Part shown: positions 21,729 to 54,029 of the stretch, in pieces
Numbering within the stretch: the first letter of the stretch is position 1
How the letters are laid out: every line of letters begins with the position of its first letter
NCBI GenBank assembly: GCA_021234155.1
Contig: JAJEKV010000112.1
Span: forward strand, 2,348,282-2,412,281
Length of the DNA: 64,000 bases
Direction of reading: 5' to 3'
DNA from: Isoetes taiwanensis
Taxonomy: Eukaryota; Streptophyta; Lycopodiopsida; Isoetales; Isoetaceae
Made by a program: the position numbers and the translations under genes
The notes under the pieces: generated by a model
Seen by the model: only the letters and a program-made list of their open reading frames with translations
Database searches by the model: none
What the model was told of the DNA's origin: nothing

Positions 21729-23037
21729 TTACTCCATCTGGGTTTCTGATACTGATTCAGGTACAACATCTAACTCCGCAGATATCCTAGCAACATGTTC
21801 CTGGCCCCTTCTTATAACCTCGGATGTGTCCATCTCTATATAGCCTGTTACATCTGGGATGTCTACAGACATGGCCTGTGCAAGGACTTGGAGATGTGGA
21901 TCGGGTTCTTCCGTCTCAGTATCCATTGCGCTGCCTTCCACCGATGCGGGATTTTGGACACCACAGTCGATTTCTGGTGTGTGGAAGAGATTCTTTTTCT
22001 TGGTTACAACCTGATGCTCTTGTGTACCACTTGGCTCACCCTCATGATGCGCAGGTTCCTCGTTGATTCCTATGTATTCGAAATTTGACCCGCCTGTCAG
22101 GAAAGGCATGTACGCATCAAATTGTTTGTTTAAAGCCCCCAATTTTTGAAACATAGGCTCTAGCACATTAATACCTTTCTCTATAGACTCTAAAAGTCTT
22201 TTCGTCTGCTGCATCCTTTGCTCGTAGCTCTGTGCATCCATTTGATCCAAGATTTCATCAAGGTTAGATATATCTGTTTTCTGGGTAATATTTATATTGA
22301 TCTTGTCAGGATCATTTGCAGTGTCTGCTTTCTCCTCTTCATATGACTCCCCAGTGCCCTGGCAAACCATTCTTTCAAGCTTATCCAAGAAAGCCCTAAG
22401 AAATCGGCATACTTTACCTTGGCTCTCGAATGCAATACTTTTCTTACAATGTAGTAAGCATATGATGTCTTCAACTGGCACTTTAGCACATGATCACCTT
22501 CCATTCCGACAAACTTGTATCTTGGTTTACCCGTGAAGTAAGTCTGCCATTTTTTTCTCATTTTCTCATCAGCTTCTTCATTTCCAGTGACAGGCATTGG
22601 TGGCAAAGGGGTGTTCTTTGGTGCTGAGCTCACCAGTGTCAAAGCCAGCTCAGGCAATATCGGCATTACCCTGGAGTCGCTTCTGTTAATGCACATATGG
22701 GTGATATAATACTGATACTCCTTTACCCTTGCTCGTCATACGTGCCTATAGAAATATGGGAGCCGCCTTGAATCTGCTTTTGACTGTACAAGCAATCTGG
22801 CAAGTTCACAGACCGCATCAGAATAACCAGGTGATAAAGATTAGCAGTTGTCATGCTGGATACTCTTGTAAAGAGCTCCATGTACTTTTTGCAGTTCCAT
22901 ATTGTAGAGAACCCCCTGATGTCAATGAACACCAGTGTTGCATTCTGAGATACTGGAGTGGATGTAGGAATCCCTTCCTTTGTCACTGCGTGAACAACAT
23001 TTTTTTTCTGTTTGATTTTGATAGCCTCTTCAGGTTT
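21729..23037 (-). pseudogene. ParB/MTase-like gene copy B, C-terminal half
   Basis: It encodes the degenerate methyltransferase-like domain and the acidic C-terminal tail, ending at the TAA at 21729. The first codons (PEEAIKIKQKK) continue in frame from the 5' half, which ends at 54030. Relative to copy A, about 82 bp are missing near 22455, which removes the SAM-binding motif I and shifts the frame. Unlike copy A, the two C-terminal Gln codons are intact. Both copies are dead, but in different ways. Confidence 0.7.
23034..23037. other. Target-site duplication GTTT (left)
   Basis: GTTT precedes the left terminus, matches 54026-54029 and occurs once in the empty site of copy A (reverse complement near 775-778). 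Confidence 0.85.
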
Positions 23038-23056
23038 GGGTCCTCGCACGCTACGG
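23038..23056 (+). repeat. Left terminal inverted repeat
   Basis: GGGTCCTCGCACGCTACGG starts directly after GTTT and is the partner of 54007-54025 in inverted orientation. It is followed by the palindrome TGACGTCA (about 23068). Confidence 0.85.
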
Positions 23057-24287
23057 GTGGCATAAATGACGTCATTTTTAGCCCTAAATAATAGCGCTAA
23101 TTAAGGGGGTTTAACTGAATTTTTAAATTTTATTTTAGCACTAAATCCCGCCCATGGGATCCTAAACCGTCAAACCTTTCCTTCTTTCCTACTTTCTTGG
23201 AGTTTCTTGGATCAGATTCAGAAACATAGCTGCTCCCCATCGAGATCCCCGTACTCTGCTTGGTTAACTGGCCGGATCAAATTGCTGTGACTGTACTACT
23301 CCTACAGCAGTAATTATCGAAATCCGTTATTTGTACCATTCTAAACAATTGCCAGTCATTAGATTCAACAAAATGCCCAATCGAGATCCCATTTCCCTAC
23401 TTGGTTAACTGGCCAGAGTAAATTGCTGTGACTGTGCTGCTTCCACAGCAGTAATTATCGAATTCGGTTATTTGTACCATTCTAAACACTCGATTGCCAG
23501 ACAATCGAGATCCCATTACCCTGCTTTGTAAAGAGCTCGGATCAAATTGCTCATCTGAACAATTTCCCAGACTCAAGAAAAGTTGTTTTAGTGGTAAGCA
23601 TCTAATCTTTGTTGACAAATCTTTGGGAATGGTAAATAATGTGGAAATGGTTTCATTCTATTATATTTCATGCTTCTATATTGAAGACAAAGGTTAATGT
23701 AGCAGGTGTGGAGGATTGCATTGCAGGTGTGGAGAATTTTTTGGGCTTGGTATCAGCGGAAAGTACAGCTTAGTAATGTTTGGTCGTGCAAGTTCAGTAG
23801 TTGATGCTAACGAGTTTAGCATTTGGTACTATGTTTGCAGACAATCAGTTAGCAAATTATGCTTACAGGTTATATTGGTACCATGTTTCGCAGGCAGTAC
23901 TTGCTAGTTAGTATATGTTGTGTACCCGAGTTACTTAGTGATTTCGTGCTATGTTTGCAGGCAGCATTTGCTAAGTAGCAGGTTACATTAAGAACGCGAA
24001 TTTTGTGCTACACTTGTAGGCTCAAATTGTTATTAGTGGCGGTTGCTAAGAAAGTTCAGTGCTAAGTTAGAAAGAGTTAGCTGCTATTTAGCATGACAGT
24101 AGGCCCAAGATAATTGGTGTTCATGACAATTAGTAATTATTTGGAAAAAGTAGCAGTTCATTGCTAAGCTCTTAGAGTTAGTACTATTCAGGATACTTAG
24201 TGCTATGATTTGGATTGGTTTAGTTTTTTGCAGACACAATGAAGAACTTCCAGTGATATATAATTTCAAAGCTGGTGCAGGGATAGA
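23057..24287 (+). promoter_or_regulatory. Left subterminal region with repeats, likely 5' region of the inward gene
   Basis: It holds a tandem repeat (23239-23560) and then about 500 bp dense in TTAGCA/TGCTAA hexamers (about 23760-24200). The latter also occur in the right subterminal part of the transposon (about 52630-53060). Clustered subterminal hexamers often serve as transposase binding sites; that role is inferred here. It presumably contains the promoter of the gene starting at 24288. No TATA box was assigned. Confidence 0.45.
23239..23560 (+). repeat. Tandem repeat, units of about 141 and 123 bp
   Basis: Units begin ATCGAGATCCC at 23239, 23380 and 23503. They share CTTGGTTAACTGGCC and TTGCTGTGACTGT blocks. 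The last unit is partial. It lies 200 bp inside the left transposon terminus. Confidence 0.8.
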
Positions 24288-25234
24288 ATGGCAACAAAGA
24301 AAACTCAACCTAAAGTGACCATAGACGAAGAGGAAGCAAGGAGGATGTTTGACACATCTGTGTTGCCTTCTGAGGGCATGACCTCTTCAGATGTAAGAAA
24401 GGCAGATGTGGCTGAAGATGAGATAAGCAAAATATTTGGCTGTGTAAAACTGGTAGGTACCAAGCAAATTTATAAGTCTAGTCGAATGAATCCACTATTT
24501 GTGGATCAGTTTATGAACATCTACAGAAGATGTTACCAAAGAACTGATATTTGTGTTGGAGAGATTGGGAAGTTTTTTGCACGGGCATTCACTTTGCATG
24601 TGAGAGGACAAAAGATTAACTGGCAGTCATTTGTGGTTAAAACGAAGAAAAGTGTTACAGCTAAGGTTGAGAAAGAAGATGAGTATGAGTCCTCATTTCC
24701 TCATATAAACGTTGTTGGTTGTGTAGTGGACTATTCTTTTTTTTTTTTTTTTTTTTTTTTTTTTTGAAGGACGTCAAGCTTTATTCACCAACTAGAAACC
24801 AGAGCAACATAAATGCAAAGACAGGATTATAACCCCAGTGGACAAACCGATCCAACTGAGCACAACCACCTGCCTATGCAAAAGAATGAATCTGAAGGTA
24901 AGTATGCCAGATCAGTACTTTCTTCTCTTGAAGGTAAGTATGCAAAAGAATGAATCTGAAGGTAAGTATGTAGTGGACTATTCTGTCATCAACTCCTTCA
25001 TTGCTGGCTTAGATAAGCAGAAGGATGACTTGAATGTTAGAGTTAAAAGTGCAGCTAGTGAAATGAAGGAAAAAAGGAAGTTGTGGAAGAAGTGTAGTTA
25101 CGAGGTGGATGCTGCAAAACAGCAAATTGAAGCAGCAAAGGCCAGGTGTGAGCACTCCAATGTCATTACATTCTTGTCATCAATGCTGGTTTCCAAGGAA
25201 AAGGAACTTTTGGAGGCGACAACAGCATACAAGA
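24288..25234 (+). CDS. Coiled-coil N-terminal exon of RING/FCP1-like gene, interrupted by a SINE
   Basis: ATG at 24288 opens an exon that reads through to a donor (AAGA/GTATGT) at 25235. The SINE at 24738-24968 splits it; without that insertion and one copy of its duplication the frame is continuous (GCVVDYS then VINSF). The N-terminal ~150 residues are of unknown type. The end (about 24985-25234) is Lys/Glu-rich and predicted coiled coil. The next exon begins at 32216 or 32220. Only the latter acceptor keeps the frame (phase 1 to phase 1), and the long intron holds the 6.9-kb Ngaro-like element. As it stands the gene is disrupted. I do not recognise the N-terminal family. Confidence 0.55.
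24722..24984 (-). mobile_element. SINE insertion with 16-bp target duplication
   Basis: TGTAGTGGACTATTCT occurs at 24722-24737 and 24969-24984. The inserted 231 bp starts with a T-run on the + strand (a poly-A tail on the - strand). On the - strand it contains an A-box-like TGCTCAGTTGG and a B-box-like GGTTATAATCC, the layout of a tRNA-derived SINE. A 31-bp segment ending GAATCTGAAGGTAAGTATG is duplicated within its 5' part. It interrupts a coding exon. Confidence 0.75.
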
Positions 25235-53827: not shown

Positions 53828-54006
53828 TGGATCACAAGAAGCCTGAACAAAAAATGGATAGAAAGAAAGAAACGAGATCTCTCTCCCTCGAGAAAGGGGG
53901 AATCAACCACCCCCCGATATTCTCGTTAATTTTGAATTTCCCTCTTCCCATAATACTAAAAAATAGTGCTAATTTGGGTGGACAAAAGGACACTAAAAAT
54001 AAGACA

Positions 54007-54025
54007 CCGTAACATGCAAGGACCC
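54007..54025 (-). repeat. Right terminal inverted repeat
   Basis: Read inward on the - strand it is GGGTCCTTGCATGTTACGG. It differs from the left end only at three C/T positions. GTTT follows at 54026. Confidence 0.85.
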
Positions 54026-54029
54026 GTTT
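54026..54029. other. Target-site duplication GTTT (right)
   Basis: Second copy of the GTTT at 23034-23037. The following CAAAATCGATC is the other half of the interrupted gene. Confidence 0.85.

What the first reader, a model, noticed from the sequence alone, without database searches (positions are those of the whole stretch)
23034..54029. A 31-kb transposon with TSD, TIRs and a preserved empty site
GTTT flanks both ends of a 30,988-bp segment whose termini are near-identical inverted 19-mers. The two halves of one gene lie on either side in correct order. A paralogous copy of that gene at about 765-790 shows the same site uninterrupted with one GTTT. These independent signs (TSD, TIR, empty site, split-gene order) make a single-event insertion very likely. 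Cut-and-paste elements of this size with several gene-like segments are rare. Subtracting recognised nested insertions still leaves about 17 kb of core.
Basis: seen in the sequence. Interest (0 to 1): 0.92.

Follow-up and report, generated by a model that had tools for sequence, protein, structure and literature searches.

The report
Nine-kilobase transposon stuffed with others
The 31-kb insertion is real, but it is one bloated copy of a roughly 9-kb cut-and-paste transposon family that other mobile elements later jumped into; the unusual part is an extra gene that its sister copies also carry.

Summary
In detail: a 30,988-bp segment (23038-54025) with 19-bp terminal inverted repeats (16/19 identical), a GTTT target duplication and an uninterrupted paralogous site at 776-779. 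The own genome (1.66 Gb) holds many copies with the same ends (40 of 224 left-end and 40 of 236 right-end candidates were scored). All 13 of 13 copies with both ends located, window included, have a perfect 4-bp duplication; the other 12 are 7.6-17.8 kb, 9 of them 8.9-11.3 kb. Set against other copies, the window copy is about 9.8 kb of element plus five later inserts (about 21.2 kb): SINE-like, DIRS-like, Helitron-like, a 413-bp stretch and an 11.8-kb CACTA-like element. So it is not a giant cargo transposon, and the 17-kb core is too large. The element encodes a DDD transposase (relatives in a moss, Klebsormidium, Taxus, Cryptomeria; integrase-like predicted fold) and fits the published description of Sola. 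A second gene, found in 5 of 5 other copies examined, has an FCP1/NIF-like domain without the usual Asp motif and a RING-H2-like stretch below the Pfam cut-off; no relatives were found. The window copy looks dead: both genes are interrupted.

The parts
23038..54025 (.). whole Sola-like element copy, 30,988 bp, nested inserts included
   Evidence: TIRs, TSD, empty site; same ends in other copies
23034..23037 (+). left copy of the target duplication GTTT
54026..54029 (+). right copy of the target duplication GTTT
23038..23056 (+). left terminal inverted repeat
54007..54025 (-). right terminal inverted repeat
776..779 (-). single GTTT (AAAC on +) of the uninterrupted paralogous site
1..2716 (+). 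uninterrupted paralogous copy of the target (cut by the window edge)
54026..54803 (-). interrupted copy of the target, first part
21248..23037 (-). interrupted copy of the target, second part
23078..24206 (.). left subterminal cluster of 6 TTAGYGCTAA-like sites
   Evidence: seen in four other copies
52684..53972 (.). right subterminal cluster of 5 TTAGYGCTAA-like sites
   Evidence: seen in four other copies
24288..24737 (+). ORF1, first coding piece up to the SINE-like insert
   Evidence: open in c1071 through the insert point
24738..24984 (-). SINE-like insert with poly-T on the + strand, and the second 16-bp copy of its target (TGTAGTGGACTATTCT at 24722-24737 and 24969-24984)
   Evidence: absent from the other copies that align there
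25265..32137 (-). DIRS-like retrotransposon; split direct repeats 25261-25296 / 25970-26005 and 25814-25976 / 31981-32143; borders uncertain by a few bases
26028..27032 (-). tyrosine recombinase of the DIRS-like insert
   Evidence: PF00589 E 4.4e-6, 27.0 bits against a cut-off of 27.1
28235..29173 (-). reverse transcriptase of the DIRS-like insert
   Evidence: PF00078 E 1.2e-13
32213..32743 (+). ORF1, RING-H2-like exon
   Evidence: zf-RING_2 15.9 bits, cut-off 27.3; ligand order by eye
32805..33101 (+). ORF1, charged exon (open frame; splice borders inferred)
   Evidence: aligned in 5 of 5 other copies
33155..33442 (+). ORF1, first part of the NIF/FCP1-like exon
   Evidence: whole exon in another copy E 8.2e-8
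33443..35318 (-). Helitron-like insert, 1,876 bp, pyrimidine-rich on +, in the NIF exon
   Evidence: TC...CTAG on the - strand, between A and T, 6-bp-stem hairpin before the end
35319..35666 (+). ORF1, second part of the NIF/FCP1-like exon
38754..39166 (.). 413-bp stretch that replaces about 10 bp of the copies compared
39167..39652 (-). transposase, C-terminal part; about 76 bp present in other copies are missing at 39522
   Evidence: tblastn of homologs
39653..51442 (.). CACTA-like insert, 11.8 kb with its 3-bp duplication ATA; holds a palindrome and the 19-bp satellite array 46871-50276
   Evidence: ends CACACTGACCCC... / CACACTCACCCC..., contiguous in the other copies that align across the point
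51443..52611 (-). transposase, central part with D, D, D; frameshift near 51850
53165..53827 (-). transposase, first exon

Best explanation
The segment is one copy of a Sola-like cut-and-paste transposon family. Shown: conserved ends, 4-bp target duplications in 13 of 13 copies with both ends located, copies of mostly 8.9-11.3 kb, a DDD transposase gene read inward from the right end and a second gene (ORF1) read inward from the left end. Inferred: the transposase binds the terminal repeats and perhaps the TTAGYGCTAA-like subterminal sites, cuts the element out and inserts it with a 4-bp stagger; this copy landed as a roughly 9.8-kb element in one of two inverted paralogous copies of a gene-like sequence. 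Shown by comparison with other copies: five later inserts (SINE-like, DIRS-like, Helitron-like, 413 bp, CACTA-like) swelled it to 31 kb. The transposase here is broken by the CACTA-like insert, a loss of about 76 bp and a frameshift, and ORF1 by at least two inserts in its coding sequence, so this copy very likely cannot make its own transposase (inference).
Against: No labelled Sola transposase was at hand, so the superfamily name rests on features. Foldseek alone gave no confident match (3 hits at E<=0.001, all to the nuclease NurA with TM-scores near 0.1). Pfam has no model for the transposase. For 7 of 11 copies tried, and for c974, no right end was found. No reads could be examined.
Confidence: 0.93

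Rival explanations
1. A true 31-kb cargo transposon that moves as a whole.
For: The two ends and the TSD enclose 31 kb; one other copy reaches 17.8 kb.
Against: The five long stretches are absent from the other copies that align across those points, and four of them have borders typical of separate insertions; 12 of 12 other copies with both ends are under 18 kb.
Confidence: 0.02
2. The element belongs to another superfamily with 4-bp duplications (for example Ginger or Chapaev; TSD lengths recalled), not Sola.
For: 4-bp duplications are not unique to Sola (recalled); no labelled Sola sequence could be compared.
Against: DDD triad, variable terminal sequences, size and presence in a moss fit the Sola description.
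Confidence: 0.15
3. ORF1 is a host gene fragment picked up once and carried passively, without a role for the element.
For: NIF domains are found in host phosphatases (recalled); pooled dN/dS is 0.85 for the RING exon and 1.25 for the next one; several copies have frameshifts or stops in it.
Against: Present in 5 of 5 other copies examined and arranged with the transposase as a facing gene pair; dN/dS 0.46 for its first exon and 0.66 for the NIF exon, against 0.46 and 0.52 for the transposase.
Confidence: 0.45
4. Assembly artefact that joins two loci.
For: No reads could be inspected; the stretch holds a 3.4-kb satellite array and large inverted repeats.
Against: Both junctions carry the same 4 bp and together rebuild the paralogous site; the nested inserts have clean borders.
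Confidence: 0.02

Closest known systems
Sola superfamily (Physcomitrella Sola1 named in PMC9033089; description in PMC10741241)
   Same: DDD transposase, 4-bp TSD, TIRs, about 9 kb, streptophyte relatives of the transposase
   Different: Carries a second gene with an FCP1/NIF-like domain; no direct sequence comparison with a labelled Sola protein was possible
Sola2-Fanzor1 elements of social amoebae (PMC3627910, passages)
   Same: A Sola-type transposase with an accessory gene and 4-bp TSDs
   Different: The accessory gene there is Fanzor1; here it is an unrelated RING-H2-like/NIF-like protein
Giant eukaryotic transposons (Polinton, Teratorn, large Helitrons; PMC6431247, passages)
   Same: Apparent end-to-end size of about 30 kb
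   Different: Here the size comes from later nested insertions, not from cargo that moves with the element

Membership tests
Sola superfamily | 4-bp target-site duplication | tested here: met
   13 of 13 copies with both ends located
Sola superfamily | DDD transposase with RNase H-like fold | tested here: met
   D222, D305, D346 invariant in the 32 homologs aligned (of 59 found) and kept in the window; predicted fold and VIA-align
Sola superfamily | TIRs of 11-1124 bp | tested here: met
   19 bp, 16 of 19 identical; range from PMC10741241
Sola superfamily | sequence relation to a labelled Sola transposase | not testable with these tools
   no protein named Sola among the 59 hits, and no Repbase at hand
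CACTA/EnSpm (nested 39653-51442) | 3-bp TSD and CAC-beginning TIRs (recalled) | tested here: met
   ATA; CACACTGACCCC / CACACTCACCCC
CACTA/EnSpm (nested 39653-51442) | CACTA-type transposase | not tested
   only one piece of this stretch was scanned (39115-39627, which proved to be Sola-like transposase); the insert's own frames were not searched
DIRS (nested about 25265-32137) | reverse transcriptase plus tyrosine recombinase | tested here: met
   PF00078 E 1.2e-13; PF00589 E 4.4e-6 at 27.0 bits, 0.1 under the cut-off
DIRS (nested about 25265-32137) | split direct or inverted repeats, no clear TSD | tested here: met
   36 and 163 nt split direct repeats; only a few shared bases at the borders
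Helitron (nested 33443-35318) | TC...CTRR ends, hairpin near the 3' end, insertion between A and T, no TSD (recalled) | tested here: met
SINE (nested 24738-24968) | short, poly-A tail, long TSD | tested here: met
   231 bp, T-run of 29, 16-bp TSD; a tRNA origin was seen by eye only, ARAGORN found no tRNA
NIF/FCP1 phosphatase (ORF1) | match to PF03031 above the cut-off | tested here: met
   32.5 bits against 21.8 in copy c1100
NIF/FCP1 phosphatase (ORF1) | catalytic Asp motif (DxDx[TV], recalled) | tested here: not met
   VIEPEDF there in 4 of 4 copies in which it was read; alignment by eye
RING-H2 domain (ORF1) | match to a RING model above the cut-off | tested here: not met
   zf-RING_2 15.9 bits against 27.3
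RING-H2 domain (ORF1) | eight metal ligands in RING-H2 order | tested here: inconclusive
   by eye all eight in window and c1100; first one changed in c1076, frame broken in c1071, split by an insert in c974, c1034 not read

The most novel reading that the evidence does not exclude
A Sola-like family encodes its own RING-H2-like / pseudo-FCP1 protein that helps it persist, for instance by acting on host transcription or silencing proteins, as accessory proteins of some other plant transposons are thought to do (recalled). ORF1 would then be a new kind of transposon-encoded host-interaction factor.
Probability: 0.2. Interest if true: 0.62.

Novelty: new variant of a known kind. Interest (0 to 1): 0.36.

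Why it matters
It turns an apparent giant transposon into a readable nest of mobile elements, a warning against size claims from a single copy. It documents a Sola-like family of at least 40 copies in a 1.66-Gb genome, with left ends 95-97% identical to the window's in the 39 other copies scored, and an accessory gene shared by the 5 of 5 other copies examined for which two protein searches found no relative (the first scored a capped list). What that gene does for the transposon is directly testable.

Tried and rejected
Rejected: a 12-kb intron in the transposase (my first reading). Other copies show the coding sequence contiguous there, and the stretch is a CACTA-like insert. Rejected: reading the pyrimidine-rich stretch at 33.5-35.3 kb as an ORF1 intron; it is a Helitron-like insert, so the joint used was partly wrong. 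Not settled: whether the DIRS-like insert lies in an ORF1 intron or in coding sequence (in c1071 the frame is open across the point).

Led nowhere: the transposase profile in viral contigs (68 stretches matched a pattern, none confirmed) and in bacterial and archaeal genomes (77 stretches, none confirmed); ORF1 relatives (the 7,996 candidates sharing most words, none at E<=0.1; 584 candidates, none at E<=1); NIF part against PDB sequences (one weak match each, to a TetR-family protein); Rfam (none); ARAGORN (none). Searches of the own genome for NIF genes, for ORF1 exons, for the transposase and for further copies of the target did not complete. Paper searches were answered; others failed. So no claim is made that the ORF1 architecture, or a DIRS element in this organism, is absent from print.

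Dropped before the TSD count: c974 (no right end found in the 40 kb fetched), of 11 copies tried, eight gave no right-end match in the 1.3 kb read (one of them, C1029, came back through) and C1027a gave a 4-mismatch match whose flank did not agree, taken as spurious.

Full report
Observation. The ends, the GTTT duplication and the uninterrupted paralog are present as stated. The element proper is 23038-54025, 30,988 bp. The 19-bp terminal repeats agree at 16 of 19 positions, and the TIR pattern is found twice in the window against 0.01 expected by chance. The paralog at 1-2716 matches the flanks 54803-54026 and 23037-21248 in inverted orientation. The site reads through with a single GTTT. Both paralogs are themselves damaged. 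The gene-like sequence has only a sub-threshold match to a DNA methylase model (17.6 bits, cut-off 26.7).

Family. The genome that holds the window has 1.66 Gb in 1,110 contigs. A 201-bp left-end probe gave 40 scored matches out of 224 candidates. The 39 besides the window are 95-97% identical; all begin within 4 bases of the TIR and 19 exactly at its first base. The right-end probe gave 40 scored matches out of 236 candidates, those besides the window 97-99% identical. Five copies were fetched at 40 kb each. Four have both ends, with duplications TTGA, TAAA, TATA and TCGA and lengths 8,907, 9,719, 9,351 and 7,583 bp; the fifth, c974, has no right end in that stretch. Of eleven further copies two gave a right end in the 1.3 kb read, with ACTT (9,312 bp) and AGCT (9,717 bp). 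Six pairs taken have GGGC, TGAC, TGAT, GTAT, TATT and TTGT, with lengths 10,263, 13,287, 11,321, 9,770, 17,820 and 10,865 bp (lengths worked out by hand from the coordinates). With the window this makes 13 of 13 copies with both ends located, all with a perfect 4-bp duplication. The duplications share no evident consensus.

What fills the 31 kb. Set against the other copies, the window copy has five extra stretches: a SINE-like insert with a 16-bp duplication (247 bp added); a DIRS-like element with split direct repeats, reverse transcriptase and tyrosine recombinase (about 6.88 kb); a Helitron-like insert with TC...CTAG ends and a 6-bp-stem hairpin, between A and T (1,876 bp); a 413-bp stretch in place of about 10 bp; and an 11.8-kb CACTA-like element with the 3-bp duplication ATA, which contains a palindrome and a 3.4-kb array of a 19-bp satellite. 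Together they add about 21.2 kb and leave about 9.8 kb. The window copy also lacks about 76 bp in the C-terminal part of the transposase and has a frameshift near 51850. Not every one of the five copies spans every insert point: c1034 has an internal deletion over part of the transposase, and c974 carries an insert of its own in ORF1.

Second gene. ORF1 runs inward from the left end. Its sequence aligns in 5 of 5 other copies, so it belongs to the family. Its last exon is a single open frame in c1100 and there matches the NIF/FCP1 phosphatase model (32.5 bits, cut-off 21.8). The place of the catalytic aspartates reads VIEPEDF in 4 of 4 copies where it was read, so phosphatase activity is unlikely (the usual motif is recalled). 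An earlier exon has cysteines and histidines in RING-H2 order in the window and c1100, below the Pfam cut-off; in c1076 the first ligand is changed, in c1071 the frame is broken there, and in c974 an insert splits it. No homolog was found. Pooled pairwise dN/dS over six copies, decay after insertion included, was 0.46 and 0.52 for the two transposase parts, 0.46 for the first ORF1 exon, 0.85 for the RING exon, 1.25 for the next exon, 0.66 for the NIF exon. These values are rough and the pairs are not independent; for ORF1 they suggest constraint in some exons only.

Subterminal motifs. Of 14 TTAGYGCTAA-like sites in the window, 11 fall in 23078-24206 or 52684-53972; counted by strand there are 19 matches against 7.1 expected, with 0 of 100 shuffles reaching 19. 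Four other copies have 8-11 sites each, 6-11 of them near the ends, and 0-1 in 20 kb of 3' flank. The motif was picked after seeing the sequence, and the copies are related. Binding by the transposase is inference.

Name. A review describes Sola as DDD transposase, 4-bp duplications, TIRs of 11-1124 bp, mostly 2-9 kb with some over 15 kb, present in the moss Physcomitrella (PMC10741241, passages); another lists Physcomitrella Sola1 (PMC9033089, passages). All of these fit. A direct comparison with a labelled Sola transposase was not possible, so Sola-like is the safe name. A Sola-type element with an accessory gene has a precedent in the Sola2-Fanzor1 elements of social amoebae (PMC3627910, passages).

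Verdict. The part worth following is the accessory gene.

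Noticed in passing
25265-32137 (-): DIRS-like retrotransposon with RT and tyrosine recombinase in a genome whose transposase relatives include streptophytes. A 2022 review says that among plants DIRS had been found only in green algae (PMC9033089, passages); the organism here is unnamed, so this is a lead only.
   Followed up: partly
43599-50276, inside the CACTA-like insert: Palindromic stretch (44296-45238 against 46525-45582, 88%) flanked on both sides by a 19-bp satellite, about 0.3 kb on the left and 3.4 kb on the right.
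   Followed up: partly
L017:5438-5875 (+), also c1071 and c1076: A third, short frame of the family (146 aa in c1100): basic and SP-rich start, acidic end, no confident Pfam match. Degenerate or deleted in several copies.
   Followed up: partly
2706-3998 (-): Radical-SAM/HemN-like gene, probably a host gene, lying against the end of the inverted duplication.
   Followed up: no
1-2716 and 54803-21248: Inverted duplication of a gene-like sequence with a sub-threshold N6/N4 methylase match; what it is and how many copies exist is open, the genome search for it did not complete.
   Followed up: partly
60433-64000 (-): Ty3-type retrotransposon with long open pol frames (RT, RNase H, protease); a second, decayed relative lies at about 15.9-18.7 kb.
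   Followed up: no
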